From IMG/VR virus record IMGVR_UViG_3300025000_000061, positions 87,783-151,782 of that record: a stretch of 64,000 nucleotides of DNA; one strand, 5' to 3'. The notes beneath the pieces were generated by a model. That model searched no databases, was not told the origin of the DNA, and saw nothing but the letters and a program-made list of their open reading frames with translations. Origin of the DNA: a virus. Below, piece by piece: positions 31,956 to 57,471 of the stretch; position 1 is the stretch's first letter, and every line of letters begins with the position of its first letter. The translations under genes and the position numbers were made by a program.

Positions 31956-34268
31956 TTGAAAGTTATTAAAAGAAATGGAGCAATAATTGAATTTGATGAA
32001 AATAGAATTATTGATGCAATTGAAAATGCCATGAGAGAAACAAAGATTGGATTAGACATTGAGATAAGTAAATTAGTTGCTAAACAAATTAAAAACCAAA
32101 ATATAGATATTATTCAAGTTGAGAAAATACAAGATATGGTAGAAGAATTTCTTATGGATACAAATAGAAAAGATGTAGCAAAGAGATACATATTATATAG
32201 AGAAAATAGAAATAAAAAAAGAAAAGTTAATAAAAATTATAATGGATTATTAAGTGAAGAATTTATAAGTAAATATAAACATAAACCATCTCCAATGAAT
32301 CAATTAGGTAATTTTGTTTATTATAGAACTTATTCTAGATGGTTGCCAGAAGAACAAAGAAGAGAGTATTGGTGGGAAACTGTAAAAAGAGCAGTTGAAT
32401 ATAATTGTAGTCTTGTACCTACTACTAAAGAAGAAGCAGAAAAACTATATGATAATATATTTAATTTACGTCAATTTTTAAGTGGAAGAACATTTTGGGT
32501 TGGTGGCACAAAAGTAGCACAAAAATATCCATGTGCAAATTTTAATTGTGCATTTGTAATATTAGATAACATTAAAGCATTTGAAGAATTATTTTATTTA
32601 CTAATGGTTGGAACAGGAGTAGGAGTAAGAGTATTAAAATCAGATGTAAATAAATTACCAAGAATTAATAATAATATAGAAATTGTACATAAAGAATATA
32701 ATCCATTATCTAAAAATAAAAGAGAAGATAATACTTCACTAGAATTTAAAAAAGATATTGCAAAAATTATCATTGGTGATTCAAAAGAGGGTTGGAGTAG
32801 AGCATTATTTTATTATATGGATATATTAACCAATAATTATTATGAAAATATTAAATTAATTATTTTTGATTATGACAATGTAAGACCAAAAGGAGAAAGA
32901 TTAAAAACATTTGGAGGCACTGCTTCTGGACATGAAAGTATTAAAAATATGTTTAAAAAGATACATATAATTGTTTGTAATTCAAATAAAAAGTTAACTC
33001 CTTTAAATTGTTTAGATATTGCAAATATAATTGGAGAAAATGTAGTTGTTGGAGGAGTAAGGCGTACAGCAGAAAATGGTTTGATTGATCATAATGATGA
33101 TGAAGTAATAAATGCAAAAAATAATTTATATATACAATTAGATGGACAATGGATTGAAAATAAAGAAATATCTCATAGAAAAATGAGTAATAATTCAATA
33201 TTTTATACTGAAAAACCCACAAGAGAAAAATTACATTGGCAAATAGAAAAAATGAGATATTCAGGTGAACCTGCTTTTGCAAATGCTGTAGCAGCTTTAA
33301 TAAGAAGATTTGATTTCGAAGGACTTAATCCATGCTTTGAAATTTTGTTGAGATCAAGAGGATTATGCAATTTAATAACATTAAATGTATTTGCATTTGT
33401 TTATAATGGAATATTAAATGTGGAAGAATTATTAAAAGCACAAATATTATCAGTTAGAGCAGGTTATAGAATGACTTGTGTAAATTTAGAATTACATGAA
33501 TGGGACTTAGTACAAAAAGAAGATAGATTATTAGGTTGCTCATTAACTGGTTGGCAGGATATGGTCAATGCAACAAATATGACATTAGATAAGCAAAAAG
33601 AATTATTAAAAAAACTTAAAAATATTGCCATAGAAGAATCGAAAAAATACTCTGCACAATTAAATATGAAAGAACCATTATTAGTTACCACTGTGAAACC
33701 AGAAGGGACTTTGAGTTTATTACCAGGAGTATCAAGTGGGGTGCATTATTCTCATTCACCTTACTATATTAGAAGAATTCGTATCAATTCAAACGATCCT
33801 CTAGTAAAAGTTTGTGAAGAATTAGAATATCCAGTTTATTATGAAGATGGAGAAACAAAAGAAAATAATAATACTAAGGTAATAGAATTTCCTGTTAAAG
33901 CACCACAAGGAAAAACAAAATATGATGTATCTGCAATTGAACAATTAGAAATATATAAAATGTTTCAAGAATATTATGTTCAACACAATACCAGTATTAC
34001 AGTTCATGTAAGAGATTATGAATGGGATGATGTAGAACAATGGATATGGGATAATTGGGATAGTGTTATAGGAGTGTCCTTTATATCTTTAAATGATAGT
34101 TTTTATCCATTAATGCCATATGAAACAATCACAGAAGAAGAATATAATAAGAGAATTAAAGAAATGAATTTATTTATACCATCATTGCTTTCAAAATATG
34201 AAAAAGAAGAAGTTGAAATAGATATTGGTAATGAAGGTTGTGAATCAGGGGTTTGTCCAATTCGCTAA
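31956..34268 (+). CDS. nrdJ: class II (B12-dependent) ribonucleoside-triphosphate reductase
   Basis: TTG start after AAGGAGGG. The 770 residues begin with an ATP-cone (VIKRNGAIIEFDENRI) that senses ATP/dATP. The barrel follows, with LSGRTFWVGGT, YPCANFNCAFV, VGTGVGVRV, the finger loop NPCFEILLRSRGLCNL (about 455) and a late KPEGTLSLLPG. The C-terminus ends GCESGVCPIR, the Cys pair that reduces the active site, as in monomeric adenosylcobalamin-dependent RTPR. It makes dNTPs from NTPs, aerobically or anaerobically, if the host supplies B12. There is no NrdB partner nearby, which fits class II. Confidence 0.93.
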   Translation: MKVIKRNGAIIEFDENRIIDAIENAMRETKIGLDIEISKLVAKQIKNQNIDIIQVEKIQDMVEEFLMDTNRKDVAKRYILYRENRNKKRKVNKNYNGLLSEEFISKYKHKPSPMNQLGNFVYYRTYSRWLPEEQRREYWWETVKRAVEYNCSLVPTTKEEAEKLYDNIFNLRQFLSGRTFWVGGTKVAQKYPCANFNCAFVILDNIKAFEELFYLLMVGTGVGVRVLKSDVNKLPRINNNIEIVHKEYNPLSKNKREDNTSLEFKKDIAKIIIGDSKEGWSRALFYYMDILTNNYYENIKLIIFDYDNVRPKGERLKTFGGTASGHESIKNMFKKIHIIVCNSNKKLTPLNCLDIANIIGENVVVGGVRRTAENGLIDHNDDEVINAKNNLYIQLDGQWIENKEISHRKMSNNSIFYTEKPTREKLHWQIEKMRYSGEPAFANAVAALIRRFDFEGLNPCFEILLRSRGLCNLITLNVFAFVYNGILNVEELLKAQILSVRAGYRMTCVNLELHEWDLVQKEDRLLGCSLTGWQDMVNATNMTLDKQKELLKKLKNIAIEESKKYSAQLNMKEPLLVTTVKPEGTLSLLPGVSSGVHYSHSPYYIRRIRINSNDPLVKVCEELEYPVYYEDGETKENNNTKVIEFPVKAPQGKTKYDVSAIEQLEIYKMFQEYYVQHNTSITVHVRDYEWDDVEQWIWDNWDSVIGVSFISLNDSFYPLMPYETITEEEYNKRIKEMNLFIPSLLSKYEKEEVEIDIGNEGCESGVCPIR

Positions 34269-34308
34269 TAATAAAATAAAAAATAATAAAATAAGAAAGG
34301 AGAATAAT

Positions 34309-35235
34309 TTGTCAGCAAAAATCAAAATTAATATAGAAGAAGTAAAAAGGGAAATGTATAATATTAAAACAATTAAAAAACTTGGTGAAATATTTAATTG
34401 TGGTAGAAATTATATGAGTAAATATCTTTTACAGAATAATTTATACGAAGAATATTGTTCAATACACAACAAACAACCAAAAACTCAAAAAGAATATTGT
34501 ATTATTTGCAATTCAGACAATCAAGTGAATAAATATAAAGGAAAACCATATTGCAAAAAACATTTTAATCATATGGTTAGATATGGTGAGGTTGTAGAAA
34601 AAACTATATATGATAAGAATGATTATATCTTTGAAAATGATATTGTTAAAATTGTATTACGTGATAAATATCAAAATATAAATGGTTATTGTATTATTGA
34701 TAAAGAAGATTATGATAAAGTTAAAAACTATAAATGGTATAAATCATATGGTTATTGTAAGACAAAAAGTATCATTAAAGATAATGGAGTTTCCATACAT
34801 AATGTAATTATGGATAATTTAGAACATATTGATGAGATAATATATGATCACAGAAATAAAGATAGATTAAATAATAAAAAAGAAAATTTAAGATTAGCCA
34901 CACAACAAGAAAATACTATGAATATGGGAATGAAAAATACAAATACTAGTGGAGTTACTGGTGTTCAACAATATAATAGAGATTCAGAATCAAAATGGGA
35001 TGCAAAAATAACTTATAAATATAAACCTATTCATTTAGGTAGATACTTAGATTTTGATGAAGCAGTTATAGCAAGATTAGAAGGTGAAGCAAAATATTTT
35101 AAAGAATATTCACCTAATTTTAATAAAGATACAAATACTATCTGTTTAGATTATATATCATATGATAGTAAATTACATAGATACATAGAGATGTCATTAG
35201 ACGGTAAAATACTTATAGACAAAACTATAAAATAA
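34309..35235 (+). CDS. HNH endonuclease with AP2 DNA-binding domain
   Basis: TTG at 34309 follows AAAGGAG and is chosen over the longer frame starting inside nrdJ. The N-terminal part has a helix-turn-helix-like region and a Cys4/His zinc element (YCIICNSDN, YCKKHFN). The centre has the HNH core (HNVIMDNL, YDHRNKDRLNNKKENLR) and the end an AP2 repeat (SGVTGVQQYNRDSESKW, HLGRYLDFDEA). This is a typical free-standing homing-type endonuclease. Its position right after nrdJ matches the habit of such nucleases to sit beside RNR genes. Confidence 0.88.
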   Translation: MSAKIKINIEEVKREMYNIKTIKKLGEIFNCGRNYMSKYLLQNNLYEEYCSIHNKQPKTQKEYCIICNSDNQVNKYKGKPYCKKHFNHMVRYGEVVEKTIYDKNDYIFENDIVKIVLRDKYQNINGYCIIDKEDYDKVKNYKWYKSYGYCKTKSIIKDNGVSIHNVIMDNLEHIDEIIYDHRNKDRLNNKKENLRLATQQENTMNMGMKNTNTSGVTGVQQYNRDSESKWDAKITYKYKPIHLGRYLDFDEAVIARLEGEAKYFKEYSPNFNKDTNTICLDYISYDSKLHRYIEMSLDGKILIDKTIK

Positions 35236-35273: not shown

Positions 35274-35759
35274 ATGAATAATAAAATTAACTGTACATTA
35301 GACGATCAAAATATAACTCTTCCCAAATATGAATCAATTTGTGCTTCAGGAATGGATTTAAGAGCATGGAAATATTCAATCCCTCATTTCTTAAAAGAAA
35401 CAAATGATTTCCCCGAACAAGGTCTTGATTTATATCCAGGTGATAGAATTTTAATTAAAACAGGATTACATATTGAATTTCCACCAAATACAGAAGCACA
35501 AATTAGACCGCGTTCTGGTTTAGCATTGAAAAACGGTATTTCAATCGTTAATTCTCCTGCCACAATTGACGAAGATTATCGTGGTGACATAGGAGTTATT
35601 CTTATTAATATGGGAGATGAACCATTTAATATTAAACAAGGCGATAGAATTGCTCAACTTGTATTCCAAGAAGTTAAAAAATATGATTTAAAAATTGTTG
35701 ATAAATTATCTGAAACGGTACGTGGTCAAGGTGGTTTTGGTTCTACTTTAATTAAATAA
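35274..35759 (+). CDS. dut: dUTP diphosphatase (dUTPase)
   Basis: All five trimeric dUTPase motifs are present in 161 residues: GMDLRAW, PRSGLALKNGI, VNSPATIDEDYRGDI, GDRIAQLVF and the C-terminal RGQGGFGST loop. It converts dUTP to dUMP, keeping uracil out of phage DNA and feeding the thymidylate synthase encoded at 51965. It ends the reductase operon and is followed by a strong terminator. Confidence 0.95.
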   Translation: MNNKINCTLDDQNITLPKYESICASGMDLRAWKYSIPHFLKETNDFPEQGLDLYPGDRILIKTGLHIEFPPNTEAQIRPRSGLALKNGISIVNSPATIDEDYRGDIGVILINMGDEPFNIKQGDRIAQLVFQEVKKYDLKIVDKLSETVRGQGGFGSTLIK

Positions 35760-38751: not shown

Positions 38752-38786
38752 AAAACTAATATAATTATAAAAGGAGGTAAATAGTT

Positions 38787-39647
38787 ATTCAATTTAATAA
38801 AGAAAACTTAATAAAATCTCCACTTAATTATGTCGGAGGCAAGTTTAAATTACTTCCTCAAATTCTACCACTATTTCCTGATAATATAGATACATTTATT
38901 GATTTATTTTGTGGTGGAGCAAATGTAGCAGTTAATGTAAAAGCAAATAAAATTATATGTAATGATATTCTTACTGAAGTAATGGTATTTTATTGTGTAT
39001 GTGAAACATTCCCTCTAAAATACATAATCAACCAAACAGAATCAGTAATAGAAGAATTTAATTTATCAAAAGATAATCAAGAAGGTTATCTAAAATTAAG
39101 AAAACATTATAACGAAGGAGATAAAAATTGGAAATATTTTTATACTCTTGTGGCACATTCATTTAGTAATCAAATTAGATTTAATAATAGAAAAGAATTT
39201 AACATGCCATTTGGCAAAAGAACATTTAATTCTGTCATGAAAGATAATTTAATTAAATTTGTAGAGAGTATAAAAAATAAAAATATTGAATTTGCAAATT
39301 TAGATTTTAAAGAATTTAACATTAATGAATTAACCAAAAATGATTTTATATTTTGTGATCCTCCATACCTAATAACTTGTGCTTCATATAATGAAAATGG
39401 TGGATGGAAAGAAAAAGATGAAATAGACTTATTAAATCTACTTGATAAATTGTATGATAAGGGTATTAGATTTGCACTTTCTAATGTGCTTGAAAGTAAA
39501 GGTAATAGCAATGACATATTGAAAAAGTGGGTTAAAGACAAGGGATATAATATACATAAATTGAATGTAAAGTATGGCAACGCAAATTATCAACGGAAAG
39601 ATAAAAGTGATAGTACGACATTAGAAGTATTGATTACTAATTATTAA
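38787..39647 (+). CDS. Dam-family adenine-N6 DNA methyltransferase, ATT start
   Basis: The first ATG (38982) would delete the SAM-binding motif. GGAGG at 38773-38777 is 9 nt before ATT at 38787, giving (M)QFNKENLIKSPLNYVGGKF, the normal start of Dam-type enzymes. Motif I is DLFCGGANVAV (about residue 38) and motif IV is CDPPY (about 190), in alpha-class order. At 286 residues it is full length. It methylates adenine in DNA, probably for protection from restriction or for control; the target site cannot be read from sequence. Confidence 0.88.
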   Translation: MQFNKENLIKSPLNYVGGKFKLLPQILPLFPDNIDTFIDLFCGGANVAVNVKANKIICNDILTEVMVFYCVCETFPLKYIINQTESVIEEFNLSKDNQEGYLKLRKHYNEGDKNWKYFYTLVAHSFSNQIRFNNRKEFNMPFGKRTFNSVMKDNLIKFVESIKNKNIEFANLDFKEFNINELTKNDFIFCDPPYLITCASYNENGGWKEKDEIDLLNLLDKLYDKGIRFALSNVLESKGNSNDILKKWVKDKGYNIHKLNVKYGNANYQRKDKSDSTTLEVLITNY

Positions 39648-41227: not shown

Positions 41228-41782
41228 ATGACTTTAGTAGTAAACTTTTTTGCTGGAAGTGGTGCAGGAAAATCAACAATGTCAACTGGTGTGTTTTCTG
41301 AATTAAAATGGATGGGTATTAATTCCGAGTATGTTGCTGAGTGGGTTAAGATGATGGTTTGGGAAGAACGTACAGCACCTTTTCAAAATCAAAACTACAT
41401 ATTCGGTAAACAACATTATAATATTCAACGTCTAGTAGATAAAGTAGATGTAGTAATCACAGATTCACCTATTATATTATCTGCATTTTATAATAATAAA
41501 ACAGAAGAAAACGAAATATTTAATCAACACATATTAAATGAATTCAATAAGTTTAATAATGTTAATTATTTTATTGATAGAGTTAAACCTTTTAACCCCA
41601 AAGGTAGATTTCAAAATGAACAAGAGGCAAAACAAGATGATATAGAGTTAAAAGAATTATTAAATACATATGAAGTAAAATTTCAAATTGTTAAAGGAAT
41701 AAAAGAGAATGTTGAAATAATTGCAAATCAAATTAAAAATATGATTAATGCTCAGAAACAAGGTATTGCTTGGAGAAGTTAA
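41228..41782 (+). CDS. P-loop NTPase, NadR-type ribosylnicotinamide kinase-like (AAA_28)
   Basis: Walker A GSGAGKST lies at residues 10-17. Downstream are SEYVAEWVK, a QNYIFGKQH segment and VVITDSPIILSAFY. This set occurs in a widespread phage ATPase group of the AAA_28 fold, the fold of the nicotinamide riboside kinase half of NadR. The next gene is an NMN adenylyltransferase, the other half of NadR. The pair would make NAD+ from nicotinamide riboside if the kinase has that activity; the specificity is inferred. Confidence 0.7.
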   Translation: MTLVVNFFAGSGAGKSTMSTGVFSELKWMGINSEYVAEWVKMMVWEERTAPFQNQNYIFGKQHYNIQRLVDKVDVVITDSPIILSAFYNNKTEENEIFNQHILNEFNKFNNVNYFIDRVKPFNPKGRFQNEQEAKQDDIELKELLNTYEVKFQIVKGIKENVEIIANQIKNMINAQKQGIAWRS

Positions 41783-41831
41783 AAAGTTAACAAATAAAAT
41801 TAATAAAAAATAAAAGGAGATAAAAATAAAC

Positions 41832-42398
41832 ATGAAAACAGGAGTATTTTTAGCAAGAATGCAACCAGTTCATAACGCACATTTGCATTTAATTAAACAA
41901 ACATGTATTGAAAACGATGAAGTTATTATTATGATAGGAAGTGCAAATAAAGAATATGAAACAAGAAATCCATTTCCGATAGAATTAAGAGTAGGTATGT
42001 TAAATGGAGCATTGCTTAATAATTTTGATTTTGATCATGTAAACAAAATTAAAATATATGCTTTACCAGACTATACGCATGAAAAAGATTATGAAAATGA
42101 TAAAGAATGGGGATTATATTTATACTACAATATTATTTCAAAAACAAAAAATAATATGTTTTCATTGTATTATTCAGATGAACCAAGTATTATGTTGAAT
42201 TGGTTTGAAAATAAAATTAAAGAAAAAATTAATTTTAGATTTTTTGAACGTAATGAATTATTTGAGGGATTAAGTGCAACCAAAATAAGAGAAGCAATAG
42301 TTAATAATGATAGATTATATATTGAAAAATACTGTCCAAAATCAGTAATAAATAATTTAGAATTACTGCAAGGCATATTAAATAATATAAGGAGTTAA
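41832..42398 (+). CDS. nicotinamide-nucleotide adenylyltransferase (NMNAT, NadM/NadR type)
   Basis: The nucleotidyltransferase signature LARMQPVHNAHLHLI (residues 7-21, HxxH with His14 and His17) and the C-terminal GLSATKIREAI (ISxTxxR type) mark an NMNAT of 188 residues. A central GSANKEYETRNPFPIELR fits the same group. It joins NMN and ATP to NAD+. It lies 50 bases after the NRK-like kinase, probably in one operon. NAD+ rebuilding enzymes in phages are known to counter NAD-depleting defence; that use is inferred here. Confidence 0.9.
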   Translation: MKTGVFLARMQPVHNAHLHLIKQTCIENDEVIIMIGSANKEYETRNPFPIELRVGMLNGALLNNFDFDHVNKIKIYALPDYTHEKDYENDKEWGLYLYYNIISKTKNNMFSLYYSDEPSIMLNWFENKIKEKINFRFFERNELFEGLSATKIREAIVNNDRLYIEKYCPKSVINNLELLQGILNNIRS

Positions 42399-48019: not shown

Positions 48020-48060
48020 AAACAAATAAAATACAATAAAAGTAAAGGAGAGTGGATTCT

Positions 48061-49005
48061 ATAAATACAAATCTAAAAACAAGATGCTTAACTTCTCAAC
48101 AATACTCATTAGAAGATTTAATTAATCTATGCAAACTAACAGATAAAATAAAAAATATTGCGTCAACAAAAGAAGGATTATTATACCTTAAATCACTTTT
48201 ACCACATAAACGTGCAATGCTTTACTTCAAGCAACCTAGTACACGTACATTTTTATCGTTTCAAAATGCATGTTACATACTAGGTATATCATGTTCTGAA
48301 ATACGTGATACTTCTACCTCCTCTGAAATGAAAGGTGAGACAGAATTAGATGCGGTAAAAACATTCTCACAATATGCAGATTTAATTATTATGAGACATC
48401 CATCAAGTGACTTTATTTATGAGATATCTGATAATTTACCTAATGATATGAGAATAATTAATGCAGGTTCAGGGACTAATGAGCACCCAACTCAGGCATT
48501 GTTAGACTTCTACACTATTTATAAATATGGGTTATTAGAAGGTAAGAAAGTTGCATTTATTGGTGATTTATTGCGAGGTAGAACTGTTAGATCACTTGCA
48601 TTACTATTAAATAAAGTTAGTGGTACTAAATTATATTTTGTTGCACCAGATAAATATCAAATCAAAAATGATATATTAAATCAATTAAATGTTAATTATG
48701 AAATTGCAAATGATATTGAAAAAGTATTACCTGAAATGGATGTTATCTATATGACTAGACTTCAAGATGAATATGGTCAAATTAATGGAGAAGATTTTAT
48801 TGATACAAGTAGATACTCAATTAATAGTAATAATATAAATATACTAAAAGAAGATGCAATTATACTTCATCCACTACCTAGAAGAAATGAAATTGCAATT
48901 GAGATTGATAAGAATAAACGTGCTAAGTATTGGGAGCAAACAAATAATGGGATGTATGTTCGTGTTGCTTTGATTAACAGTATGTTTAATGTATGTGGAT
49001 TGTAA
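48061..49005 (+). CDS. pyrB: aspartate carbamoyltransferase catalytic chain, ATA start
   Basis: GTG at 48052 is only 1 nt from AAAGGAG; ATA at 48061 is 10 nt away and is preferred. Active-site motifs are complete: PSTRT (Ser60-Thr63), SSEMKGETE with Lys91, EHPTQALLD (His142), GDLLRGRTVRS and HPLPR. The 314 residues equal a normal catalytic chain. The enzyme makes carbamoyl-aspartate from carbamoyl phosphate and aspartate, the committed step of pyrimidine synthesis. No PyrI regulatory chain is seen, so it would escape nucleotide feedback if it behaves like unregulated PyrB. A phage-borne copy is unusual. Confidence 0.93.
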   Translation: MNTNLKTRCLTSQQYSLEDLINLCKLTDKIKNIASTKEGLLYLKSLLPHKRAMLYFKQPSTRTFLSFQNACYILGISCSEIRDTSTSSEMKGETELDAVKTFSQYADLIIMRHPSSDFIYEISDNLPNDMRIINAGSGTNEHPTQALLDFYTIYKYGLLEGKKVAFIGDLLRGRTVRSLALLLNKVSGTKLYFVAPDKYQIKNDILNQLNVNYEIANDIEKVLPEMDVIYMTRLQDEYGQINGEDFIDTSRYSINSNNINILKEDAIILHPLPRRNEIAIEIDKNKRAKYWEQTNNGMYVRVALINSMFNVCGL

Positions 49006-49458: not shown

Positions 49459-49704
49459 ATGAGTAATAAAAAACTACAACAAATAATTGATTTCTTTGAA
49501 TTAGAAGAAGGATATAGTAAAAATGATATTATATCAGATATAATTGGTGAAATAAAAGAACTTCAAGGTTATTCTTCTGATGAAATTGGACTTGAATGGG
49601 ACGGAAAATATTTAATGAATTTAGATGATTTTGTTAATGACTTTTATTATAAACTTATTGAAAGAATTTGTAATGTCATAAAAAGTTTTCAAAAAAATAA
49701 TTAG
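49459..49704 (+). CDS. small acidic protein (81 aa)
   Basis: ATG after AAAAGGAG. Acidic, helical ends around a short strand region. No family recognised. Confidence 0.66.
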   Translation: MSNKKLQQIIDFFELEEGYSKNDIISDIIGEIKELQGYSSDEIGLEWDGKYLMNLDDFVNDFYYKLIERICNVIKSFQKNN

Positions 49705-53695: not shown

Positions 53696-54247
53696 ATGCA
53701 TATTATTTTAATCTCAGGTAAAGCACAACATGGTAAAAATCAAAGTGCAGAAATAATTAAACAAAAATTAGAGCAATACAATAAAAAAGTATTGATAACT
53801 GCATACGGTGATTTAGTTAAATATATATGCGAAAAGTTTTTTAATTGGAATGGACAAAAGGACGAAAAAGGTAGAACACTTTTACAGTATGTAGGAACAG
53901 ATGTTGTTCGTACACAAAAACCTAATTTTTGGGTTGATTTTATAATTAGTATTTTGACTTTATTTAAAGGTGAATGGGATTATGTATTAATTCCTGATTG
54001 CAGATTCGTTAATGAGTTGAAAAGATATGGAGAAGAATGGGATACAACAACTGTAAGAGTTAATAGATTAAATTTTGAAAATAATCTTACATATAAACAA
54101 AAGAATCATCCGTCTGAAACAGAATTAGATAATTATCATTTTGATTATGTTATTAATGCAGAAAGTGGATTAGATAAATTAGAGATGGAAGTGAATGAAT
54201 TTTTGTATTGGTTACTTCCTATATTAAAGGAGGAAATTAATGAGTAA
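53696..54247 (+). CDS. deoxynucleoside monophosphate kinase-like protein
   Basis: The N-terminal P-loop is GKAQHGKNQS (residues 7-16), the unusual form found in phage dNMP kinases of the T4 gp1/SPbeta type. Later LQYVGTDVVRTQKPNFWVD and a PDCRFVNE segment fit that family. It would phosphorylate dNMPs such as dTMP toward dNTPs. It lies between DHFR and a 5'-nucleotidase and overlaps the latter by 8 bases. Confidence 0.85.
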   Translation: MHIILISGKAQHGKNQSAEIIKQKLEQYNKKVLITAYGDLVKYICEKFFNWNGQKDEKGRTLLQYVGTDVVRTQKPNFWVDFIISILTLFKGEWDYVLIPDCRFVNELKRYGEEWDTTTVRVNRLNFENNLTYKQKNHPSETELDNYHFDYVINAESGLDKLEMEVNEFLYWLLPILKEEINE

Positions 54248-54791
54248 ACCTAAAATACCAATCTACATAGACATGGATGAAGTGATTTGTGATTTCCTAA
54301 CTAAACTATGCTCAGAATACAATAATAAATATAATAAAGATTTAAAACCAAGTGATATTAAATCATATAACCTTTTACCATATATAGGTGAAGAAGGTAT
54401 TGAGTTACTTAAACAACCTGGATTTTTTAGTGATTTAAAACCAATTGAAGATACATGGGAAATAATATTTAGGTTGTTAGCAGAAGGTGAAGATATATTT
54501 ATAATTTCTTCTCCAATGAACGAATACAGTGTGTTTGAAAAATATCAATGGGTTCAAAAATATTTATCATTCTTTCCTATTAAAAATTTAATTCTAGTTG
54601 GTAATAAAGGTGAGTTGTTAGAAAGATTAGATAGAAATGGAATTTTATTCGATGACTGCCCATTATACATAGAAAAGTTTGGTGGAATTACGGTTGTTAT
54701 GGATAGGGCGTATAATCAGGGGATTGAATGTGATTTTAGAATTAGTAGTTGGGAAGAGTTTTATGAAGTTGTTAAAGAAATATTAAAATAA
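54240..54791 (+). CDS. 5'(3')-deoxyribonucleotidase (HAD family)
   Basis: The HAD nucleophile motif is YIDMDEVICDF (DxDE, residues 9-19). The middle has SSPMNEY (motif II), and the end has FDDCPLYIEKF (motif IV). The length of 183 residues fits the NT5C group. It removes phosphate from deoxynucleotides, and phages use it to shape or balance dNMP pools. AAAGGAGG lies in the end of the kinase gene. Confidence 0.88.
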   Translation: MSKPKIPIYIDMDEVICDFLTKLCSEYNNKYNKDLKPSDIKSYNLLPYIGEEGIELLKQPGFFSDLKPIEDTWEIIFRLLAEGEDIFIISSPMNEYSVFEKYQWVQKYLSFFPIKNLILVGNKGELLERLDRNGILFDDCPLYIEKFGGITVVMDRAYNQGIECDFRISSWEEFYEVVKEILK

Positions 54792-55953: not shown

Positions 55954-57471
55954 TTAATAAAATTGTATATCTAATTCAGCTTCATTGTCATCAATTCTAG
56001 TCCATACAATTTTTTCAATTATTGATTTATAGAATTTATTTTTTTCTTCAGCAGTAATATCTTCTTTATTTAGATTGTCTAATACTTTATTAATTGTAAA
56101 AATTTTATCATCAATAGATTTAATCTGATCAACATTTAAAGAATTCTCTAATTCATCTATCTCAACATCAACCTTTTCAATTTCATTTTCCCATTTAGAT
56201 TTTCTATCTAACCATTGTTCTCTAGTATAGTCACCTAATTCATATGCTTCATTAACTTTTTCTAAAGCTGTCTTAAATTTATTTAATTGTTTGCTTTTTT
56301 GTTTTATTATTAATTCTATTTTTTTATTGTCTTTATTTATTTCTGTAGGCATATTATTAATTAAATTATCACGATAATTAATTATTGCTAATAAAACCTC
56401 TTTCGATATTTCTTCAATATTACCAGAACGATTAGGACACTTATTGCCAAAAGCATCAATATACCAACAAGGTTTCATATAAATTTTCTCAGAATTTTTT
56501 TTCTTTAAAAAAGTTATAGAATATCCACATATACTACACTTAATAATTCCAGAAAATTCAAATACACCTTGCTTTGCTCTTGAAGGTGTTTTATTTCTTT
56601 GTTTAAATAATTCTATAATTCTATTATGTTCTTCTATGGTTTTTACTGGTAAATGGCAATTCTCAACAACAATCCACCTATCTCTAGAGTAATTAATTAT
56701 CTTTTCTCCTTTTCGAGTATTGCCTTTAGTTTTATTGCTGATTATTTTTCCCAAATGAGTTTCACTTAAAAGTAATCTTTGCACAACAACACCATACCAT
56801 TTACTACCACGTTCATAAGGTGTAGGAATACCTAATTTATTTAATTCAATTGCAACATTTTCAACTGTTAATAATTTATCAAGAAATAGAGACTTAATTA
56901 AATTATAAGTCGATAATTTTTCTTCATCTATAATTAAACCTTTTGTTTGAGGATTATATTTATATGGGATAGGTGCTGTTCCATTTGTCCAATTGCCCAT
57001 CTTGCTTCCAATTTTCTTACCACGCAACATTCTTCTTTTGATCATCTTATATTCCTGGCGACTCATAAAGGAAATTAATTCCAGAAATGTTTCATCATCT
57101 TCATTTTCTAAATTATAAACTTTATTAGGAGTAATAATTAATGTACCAGACTTTTTAAATATTCTTTTAATTTTTCCAGAATCTTCCTCTGAACCTCTCG
57201 ATAATCTGTCATAATCTACAACTAATACAGCGTCAAATAAATCATTTTCTATATCTTCAAGTAATCTAATCATCTCAGGTCTACCATCAATACTATCACC
57301 TGAAGCAACTTCTTTATAAATTACATATCTTAAATTATGCATTTTAGCAAAATCTGTTAATAATGAATTATGTTTTTCTAATGTTTCGTCTGTTTCTTCC
57401 AGACCTTTCGCCCTTGATTTACGCAAATATATAGCAACATCTTTTATTATTTCTGATAATTTATTTTCCAT
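55954..57471 (-). CDS. large serine recombinase (phage integrase)
   Basis: The 505-residue protein has an N-terminal resolvase domain with AIYLRKSR (nucleophile Ser19), SGDSIDGRPEM and VVDYDRLSRG. A recombinase domain follows (SKMGNWTNGTAPIPYKY), then a zinc ribbon (IKCSICGYS, with later Cys at KPCWYI and NKCPNR) and a long coiled coil (about 380-450). AAAGGTGG precedes its ATG. It inserts the phage at yyaL by attP x attB recombination; excision needs a directionality factor, which I could not identify. Confidence 0.95.
   Translation of the reverse strand: MENKLSEIIKDVAIYLRKSRAKGLEETDETLEKHNSLLTDFAKMHNLRYVIYKEVASGDSIDGRPEMIRLLEDIENDLFDAVLVVDYDRLSRGSEEDSGKIKRIFKKSGTLIITPNKVYNLENEDDETFLELISFMSRQEYKMIKRRMLRGKKIGSKMGNWTNGTAPIPYKYNPQTKGLIIDEEKLSTYNLIKSLFLDKLLTVENVAIELNKLGIPTPYERGSKWYGVVVQRLLLSETHLGKIISNKTKGNTRKGEKIINYSRDRWIVVENCHLPVKTIEEHNRIIELFKQRNKTPSRAKQGVFEFSGIIKCSICGYSITFLKKKNSEKIYMKPCWYIDAFGNKCPNRSGNIEEISKEVLLAIINYRDNLINNMPTEINKDNKKIELIIKQKSKQLNKFKTALEKVNEAYELGDYTREQWLDRKSKWENEIEKVDVEIDELENSLNVDQIKSIDDKIFTINKVLDNLNKEDITAEEKNKFYKSIIEKIVWTRIDDNEAELDIQFY

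What the first reader, a model, noticed from the sequence alone, without database searches (positions are those of the whole stretch)
48061..49005. Phage-encoded aspartate carbamoyltransferase
A full-length ATCase with all active-site motifs lies in a phage that also has RNR, dUTPase, ThyA, DHFR, dNMP kinase and 5'-nucleotidase. Reaching back to the first committed step of pyrimidine synthesis is unusual. It has no PyrI chain, so it may escape feedback control and push carbon to dTTP, which suits a genome of about 75% A+T.
Basis: partly seen in the sequence, partly recalled or inferred. Interest (0 to 1): 0.72.

Follow-up and report, generated by a model that had tools for sequence, protein, structure and literature searches.

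The report
Phage pyrimidine enzyme with non-AUG start
A group of uncultured, very AT-rich phages carries its own intact copy of the enzyme for the first committed step of pyrimidine synthesis, always near its thymidylate genes and apparently translated from the rare start codons AUA, AUC or AUU; a similar enzyme is already known in an algal virus, so the unusual part is the start codon and the conservation in phages.

Summary
The + strand ORF ending at 49005 is a full-length aspartate carbamoyltransferase (ATCase). It scores above the NCBI equivalog cut-off, folds like solved ATCases, and keeps every catalytic and aspartate-binding residue checked. Seven other IMG/VR contigs encode it at 67-77% identity, under purifying selection. 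In all seven phages whose sequence reaches that far it lies a few kb upstream of a thymidylate synthase, ThyA in three and ThyX in four. The eight form one clade, sister to two low-GC Bacilli/Mollicutes MAG genes, inside a deep cellular ATCase subfamily. Viral catalytic-only ATCase is known (chlorovirus PBCV-1). Absence of PyrI is shared with the cellular relatives examined. The phage record has no CarB, DHOase, DHODH or OPRTase, and the two nearest cellular carriers seem to lack them too, so flux to dTTP is unproven. An unreported feature emerged. All eight genes have [A/G]TG 0-1 nt from the Shine-Dalgarno and an in-frame AUA/AUC/AUU 9-10 nt from it, the genome's usual spacing. In another gene of this window, a DNA methyltransferase, the first canonical start lies downstream of conserved motifs. 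Non-AUG initiation is therefore likely real here.

The parts
48061..49005 (+). ATCase coding sequence, 314 codons plus stop, most likely starting at ATA 48061
   Evidence: TIGR00670 241.5 bits; every catalytic and aspartate-binding residue of E. coli PyrB that was checked is identical in 10 of 10 relatives; AlphaFold2 model pLDDT 85, top 50 PDB matches all ATCases
48044..48050 (+). Shine-Dalgarno AAAGGAG, 10 nt before ATA 48061 and 1 nt before GTG 48052
   Evidence: sequence; spacing survey
48061..48063 (+). ATA codon, inferred start; ATA, ATT or ATC at the matching place in all 8 phage homologues
48052..48054 (+). in-frame GTG, less likely start (spacer 1 nt)
49459..49704 (+). 81-aa ORF downstream of ATCase, detected in four of the seven sister loci
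   Evidence: L001, L011, L014, L015
51965..52795 (+). ThyA, downstream partner; ThyX instead in L001, L002, L011 and L015
52785..53336 (+). DHFR
53696..54247 (+). deoxynucleoside monophosphate kinase-like
54240..54791 (+). NT5C-type 5'(3')-deoxyribonucleotidase
35274..35759 (+). dUTPase
31956..34268 (+). B12-dependent (class II-like) ribonucleotide reductase
38787..39647 (+). D12 DNA adenine methyltransferase starting at ATT 38787; second case of non-AUG start
   Evidence: Pfam match 1-251/253 at 138.5 bits with ATT start versus 59-251 at 78.2 bits from the first ATG 38982

Best explanation
The gene encodes an active, trimeric, catalytic-only ATCase that makes N-carbamoyl-L-aspartate from carbamoyl phosphate and aspartate. 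During infection it supplies this step inside a phage-borne thymidylate module (class II RNR, dUTPase, dCMP deaminase, ThyA/DHFR or ThyX, dNMP kinase, nucleotidase), outside the host's control of pyrB, so that pyrimidine supply for an approximately 76% A+T genome does not depend on the host enzyme. Translation is tuned by an AUA/AUC/AUU start behind a strong Shine-Dalgarno. Shown: family, intact active site, selection, module linkage, absence of PyrI, start-site anatomy. Inferred: activity, trimer, expression, that the host supplies carbamoyl phosphate and the later steps, and that the start codon lowers expression.
For: Equivalog hit to asp_carb_tr. All PDB top matches are ATCases. Catalytic residues S52, T53, R54, T55, S80, K84, R105, H134, Q137 and aspartate-site residues R167, R229, Q231, P266, L267, P268 are identical in 8 phage and 2 cellular proteins, with pairwise dN/dS 0.09-0.22 among phages. 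ATCase precedes ThyA or ThyX in 7 of 7 testable phages. The subfamily is the only ATCase-type protein above the cut-off in most cellular genomes examined, and the pyr gene clusters of G003 and G012 lack pyrB, so the subfamily most likely serves pyrimidine synthesis in cells. Lactococcus represses pyrB 36-fold within 15 min of phage sk1 infection (PMC10986495), a reason to carry one's own. The viral precedent PBCV-1 raises ATCase activity two-fold in extracts of infected cells (PMC10142491). The Phe needed for UMP inhibition of plant ATCase is Thr here.
Against: No activity, expression or host data. The phage record has no CarB, PyrC, PyrD or PyrE match, nor CarA or PyrF by tblastn. The two closest cellular carriers also lack detectable PyrC, CarB and PyrE and have no convincing PyrD, so if the host resembles them the product would be a dead end. 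The record is linear and probably partial; no terminase or capsid was recognised in it.
Confidence: 0.62

Rival explanations
1. The enzyme is a real ATCase but in this phage/Bacilli branch it works outside de novo pyrimidine synthesis, for example in carbamoyl phosphate or carbamoyl-aspartate turnover in a host that lacks the rest of the pathway.
For: G001 and G002, the only cellular sisters (100/98 support), have this ATCase with no PyrC, CarB, PyrE, carbamate kinase or OTC match and no convincing PyrD; 738 kb of G002 gave no CarA/B, PyrC, E or F by tblastn although 24 of 29 dispersed markers were found. 24 of 40 genomes searched as G001 and its relatives have no ATCase or OTC match at all.
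Against: Both MAGs are incomplete and their curated completeness is unknown; the host of the phage is not known; the aspartate site is unchanged; no other use of carbamoyl-aspartate is established.
Confidence: 0.2
2. It carbamoylates another acceptor (ornithine, putrescine or other).
For: Very long stem (2.6 changes per column) separates the subfamily from canonical PyrB.
Against: R167, R229, Q231 and the S80/K84 loop are unchanged; the OTC family score is far below its cut-off; OTCs in the same cellular genomes are separate genes with DVWxSMG-type motifs; best structure matches are all ATCases.
Confidence: 0.05
3. Translation starts at the canonical GTG 48052 (ATG in some homologues), not at ATA, so the non-AUG start is an illusion.
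For: All eight genes have an in-frame ATG or GTG at this place.
Against: It lies 0-1 nt from GGAG. In the genome the GGAG-ATG spacer peaks at 8-11 nt; of the few ATGs at 3 nt or less, all but one have a second ATG at 9-11 nt. Of 18 SD-bearing ORFs without a canonical start at proper spacing, 17 have AUH at 8-10 nt against a background codon frequency of 0.104. A methyltransferase in the window can only be full length from ATT.
Confidence: 0.15
4. Passenger gene or host contamination with no role for the phage.
For: The two nearest cellular homologues are 65-70% identical.
Against: Found in eight contigs with shared neighbourhood, as one clade, under purifying selection; the record has 0 of 25 ribosomal-block markers.
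Confidence: 0.03

Closest known systems
Chlorovirus PBCV-1 A169R, viral catalytic-only ATCase (PMC10142491)
   Same: Virus-encoded ATCase catalytic chain without regulatory chain, in a genome that also has RNR, dUTPase, dCMP deaminase, thymidylate synthase and a deoxynucleoside kinase; the same proposal of feedback-free pyrimidine drive.
   Different: Eukaryotic algal virus, gene closest to an algal homologue; measured activity and early transcription; here a phage clade, a bacterial subfamily, and AUH start codons.
TIGR00670 asp_carb_tr / PyrB family
   Same: Equivalog score above cut-off, same fold, all catalytic residues.
   Different: Belongs to a deep subfamily (YFxQPSTRTFLSF motif) far from E. 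coli and B. subtilis type PyrB.
ATCase of the 595-kb uncultured phage record LR756511
   Same: Phage-associated ATCase with STRT, HPTQ and HPLPR motifs.
   Different: 39% identical over 299 residues, outside the clade; separate acquisition likely; neighbours not recognised as dTMP genes by inspection.
infC and ccpN-type AUA/AUU start genes of Bacillota (PMC13009471)
   Same: AUH start with an extended Shine-Dalgarno; reported to give about 10% of AUG expression in poor medium.
   Different: There only four such sites were identified in the genome; here several genes per phage group, including a metabolic enzyme conserved in eight phages.
Cyanophage carbamoyltransferase/pyrBI annotations (PMC9146016, PMC10436341)
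   Same: Claimed first step of pyrimidine synthesis in a phage.
   Different: The tblastn of the phage collection listed no record named as a cyanophage, so these may be another carbamoyltransferase family; not tested directly.

Membership tests
Aspartate carbamoyltransferase (TIGR00670) | score at or above the curated equivalog cut-off | tested here: met
   241.5 bits, cut-off 236.95
Aspartate carbamoyltransferase (TIGR00670) | carbamoyl phosphate site STRT, R105, H134, Q137, plus S80/K84 from the neighbouring chain | tested here: met
   identical in 10 of 10 proteins
Aspartate carbamoyltransferase (TIGR00670) | aspartate site R167, R229, Q231, P266-L267-P268 | tested here: met
   identical in 10 of 10
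Aspartate carbamoyltransferase (TIGR00670) | ATCase fold | tested here: met
   TM-score 0.80-0.87 to ATCases in the top 50 PDB matches
Aspartate carbamoyltransferase (TIGR00670) | enzyme activity with aspartate | not testable with these tools
   needs assay or pyrB complementation
Ornithine carbamoyltransferase (TIGR00658) | curated cut-off 280.85 bits | tested here: not met
   100.6 bits; the region aligned to R229/Q231 reads YMTRLQDE, not the DVWxSMG seen in OTCs
PyrBI holoenzyme (E. coli type) | PyrI regulatory chain | tested here: not met
   no PyrI_C match in the phage record; one sub-cut-off match in G023; none in the seven cellular genomes tested
UMP-regulated plant-type ATCase | Phe161 in the CP-loop | tested here: not met
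   Thr at the aligned place, invariant in the 13-sequence alignment; role of F161 from PMC7878868
Viral catalytic-only ATCase (PBCV-1 A169R kind) | virus genome, catalytic chain only | tested here: met
Viral catalytic-only ATCase (PBCV-1 A169R kind) | early expression and raised ATCase activity in infected cells | not testable with these tools
   no cultured host
Gene with AUH start (infC/ccpN kind) | Shine-Dalgarno at normal spacing to AUA, AUC or AUU with no AUG/GUG/UUG at normal spacing | tested here: met
Gene with AUH start (infC/ccpN kind) | initiation shown by ribosome mapping or N-terminal peptide | not testable with these tools
   no data

The most novel reading that the evidence does not exclude
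This phage lineage uses AUA, AUC and AUU as regular start codons for a subset of genes (ATCase in eight of eight, a D12 methyltransferase in two, singly in a GIY-YIG-like nuclease, a transposase-like gene, a kinase-like gene and others; the last three named by eye only). The weak start, read against IF3, serves as a translational brake or timer during infection.
Probability: 0.5. Interest if true: 0.68.

Novelty: new variant of a known kind. Interest (0 to 1): 0.52.

Why it matters
It gives a well-supported case of a phage lineage that keeps the first committed pyrimidine enzyme next to its thymidylate genes while swapping ThyA for ThyX, which argues that upstream pyrimidine supply can limit phage DNA synthesis. 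It is testable against the finding that a Gram-positive host represses pyrB most strongly on infection. The repeated AUA/AUC/AUU starts would add translation-initiation strength as a control layer in phage metabolic genes and show that gene callers limited to AUG/GUG/UUG truncate such proteins. The nearest cellular carriers, which seem to lack the rest of the pathway, raise the open question of what an isolated ATCase does.

Tried and rejected
UGA recoding (code 4) was considered because one of the nearest cellular relatives is labelled Mollicutes; TGA ends 21 of 167 long frames in the phage and is used in L019, so it was not pursued. Most other hits in the phage collection (Salmonella, Listeria, Acinetobacter 'phage' records) look like host DNA and were not used. 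The LR756511 protein was left out of the structure alignment because the tool does not accept it. CRISPR arrays in G002 as a host link: none found by a crude scan of the held 738 kb. Rfam elements near the gene: none. Promoter and terminator matches are at chance level. BFVD has no convincing viral structural neighbour; best hits are cyclohydrolases at 11-12% identity. The second TIGR00670 matches L122-L127 looked like possible PyrB paralogues but their sequences are OTCs.

Full report
What is there. The ORF ending at 49005 is a genuine ATCase. It matches both carbamoyltransferase domains of Pfam over nearly their full lengths and the NCBIfam equivalog asp_carb_tr above its cut-off, with the ornithine enzyme far below its own. 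Aligned to E. coli PyrB it has 112 identities in 327 columns. An AlphaFold2 model (pLDDT 85, pTM 0.87) finds only ATCases among its best 50 PDB matches. The catalytic residues and the residues that read aspartate are invariant in eight phage and two cellular proteins. Pairwise dN/dS between phage copies is 0.09 to 0.22, so the enzyme is kept for what it does.

Where it is. The window is the last 64 kb of a 151,782-base linear virus record. The record has phage-type DNA polymerase, helicases, RecJ and ligase, RNA ligase and an integrase, and endolysin, primase and Mom-like proteins, and none of 25 ribosomal-block markers. No terminase or capsid was recognised, so it is probably a fragment. Its conserved 685-aa protein is 62% identical to one of Clostridioides phage pCD1602_4, and the best named matches of its DNA polymerase are in phages of Bacillota, which points to a Bacillota-type host by inference.

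Relatives. Seven further IMG/VR contigs encode the protein at 67-77% identity. In the seven phages whose sequence reaches that far, ATCase lies a few kb upstream of a thymidylate synthase: ThyA in G000, L013 and L014, ThyX in L001, L002, L011 and L015. One or more of DNMK, NT5C and DUF5664 follow in six of them, L014's contig ending inside ThyA. Keeping ATCase through a change of thymidylate synthase class is good evidence of functional linkage. In a maximum-likelihood tree the eight phage proteins form one clade (95/91), sister to two MAG proteins, Bacilli STF2_181 and Mollicutes AS08sgBPME_29 (100/98), inside a subfamily of Bacillota, Kiritimatiellota, Lentisphaerota, Elusimicrobiota and others that is separated from canonical PyrB by a stem of 2.6 changes per column. 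The direction of transfer between phage and Bacilli is not resolved. The ATCase of the 595-kb record LR756511 falls outside this clade.

Is the subfamily a pyrimidine enzyme? Of 22 cellular genomes with it, two (G007, G011) have a second ATCase above the cut-off; the other second matches examined by sequence are OTCs. The pyr gene clusters of G003 and G012, identified by inspection of the ORFs around family hits, contain pyrC, pyrK, pyrD, pyrF and pyrE, with carAB in G012, but no pyrB. The subfamily therefore most likely fills the PyrB role in those cells. None of the seven cellular genomes tested has PyrI, so the missing regulatory chain is a property of the subfamily, not of the phage. The residue that gives plant ATCase its UMP inhibition is Thr here. 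Escape from nucleotide feedback is plausible but is not a phage invention.

A complication. The two closest cellular carriers show no PyrC, no CarB, no convincing PyrD, no OTC, no carbamate kinase and no PyrE. For one of them 738 kb was read: 24 of 29 dispersed housekeeping markers were found but no CarA, CarB, PyrC, PyrE or PyrF. Of 40 genomes searched as G001 and its relatives, 24 have no ATCase or OTC match at all. Both MAGs are incomplete, so this is suggestive, not proof. If the phage host is of this kind, carbamoyl-aspartate made by the phage enzyme could not become dTTP by the known pathway. The dTTP model therefore rests on a host that is still unknown.

How it is probably translated. 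The only canonical in-frame codons near the N terminus are GTG 48052, one base from GGAG, and ATG 48217, which follows the conserved N-terminal stretch. In the whole record the GGAG-ATG spacer peaks at 8-11 nt, and spacers of 3 nt or less are nearly always accompanied by a second ATG at 9-11. All eight phage ATCases have [A/G]TG at 0-1 nt and ATA, ATT or ATC at 9-10 nt. In a survey of the eight contigs, SD-bearing ORFs of 90 codons or more start with ATG 152 times, TTG 8 and GTG 4; of 18 with no such codon at proper spacing, 17 have AUH at 8-10 nt, against 10.4% AUH among ordinary codons. Counting the eight ATCases as one case leaves 10 of 11; two of the ten are homologous methyltransferases, so the cases are not fully independent. 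The MAG G002 serves as control: 70 canonical, seven without, one of those AUH and by its position a false SD. The strongest single case is the D12 methyltransferase of this window: conserved motifs lie before its first ATG (38982), and starting at ATT 38787 raises the Pfam match from 78.2 bits (profile 59-251) to 138.5 bits (profile 1-251). AUA and AUU starts with extended Shine-Dalgarno are experimentally known in S. aureus, where they were reported to give about 10% of AUG expression in poor medium (PMC13009471), and infC of the MAG relative appears to start with ATC. I conclude that these phages probably initiate ATCase at AUH and hold its expression down or make it depend on IF3; the regulatory purpose is inference.

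Why a phage would carry it. Lactococcus represses pyrB 36-fold within 15 minutes of phage sk1 infection (PMC10986495), which would make a phage-borne copy outside host control useful. The chlorovirus PBCV-1 carries an active catalytic-only ATCase and the same flux idea is published for it (PMC10142491). The finding is thus a new variant of a known kind of viral metabolic gene.

Verdict. Observation confirmed. Interpretation partly supported: right enzyme, right neighbourhood, feedback escape plausible but shared with cells, dTTP drive unproven. The added value is the phage-wide conservation, the deep subfamily, the apparent isolation of the enzyme in its closest cellular relatives, and the non-AUG start.

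Noticed in passing
window 38770-39647: D12 DNA adenine methyltransferase that is full length only if translated from ATT 38787; the homologue in L012 (2722-3597) has ATA at the matching place.
   Followed up: yes
L002:5412, L011:5170, L011:5949, L011:11404, L013:11472, L013:16074; record 116593: Other ORFs whose Shine-Dalgarno is followed at 8-10 nt by ATA, ATC or ATT and by no canonical start at proper spacing.
   Followed up: partly
record 83283-86515 (L009:3283-6512): QueD-like, QueE-like and QueC homologues followed by an ORF that resembles a tRNA-guanine transglycosylase by eye (no Pfam or PHROG hit): candidate 7-deazaguanine modification set, with a Mom-like protein also in the record.
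   Followed up: partly
L006:8817-9584 and L006:14865-15281: Phage-encoded tRNA-His guanylyltransferase (Thg1) and peptidyl-tRNA hydrolase 2, although ARAGORN finds no tRNA in the window.
   Followed up: no
window 41228-42398: AAA_28 kinase-like and cytidylyltransferase-like ORFs side by side, possibly NAD metabolism.
   Followed up: no
window 55954-57471 (-): Large serine recombinase; an integrase family match also lies at L007:7187-8248. Possible temperate or integrating lifestyle.
   Followed up: no
window 34225-35235: HNH endonuclease ORF overlapping the 3' end of the class II RNR gene.
   Followed up: no
L217, L218, L021: In several cellular relatives the ATCase gene sits next to an OTC (argF-like) gene.
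   Followed up: partly
L264 near 7101: infC of MAG G002 appears to start with ATC behind GGAGGTG, as expected for IF3 autoregulation.
   Followed up: partly
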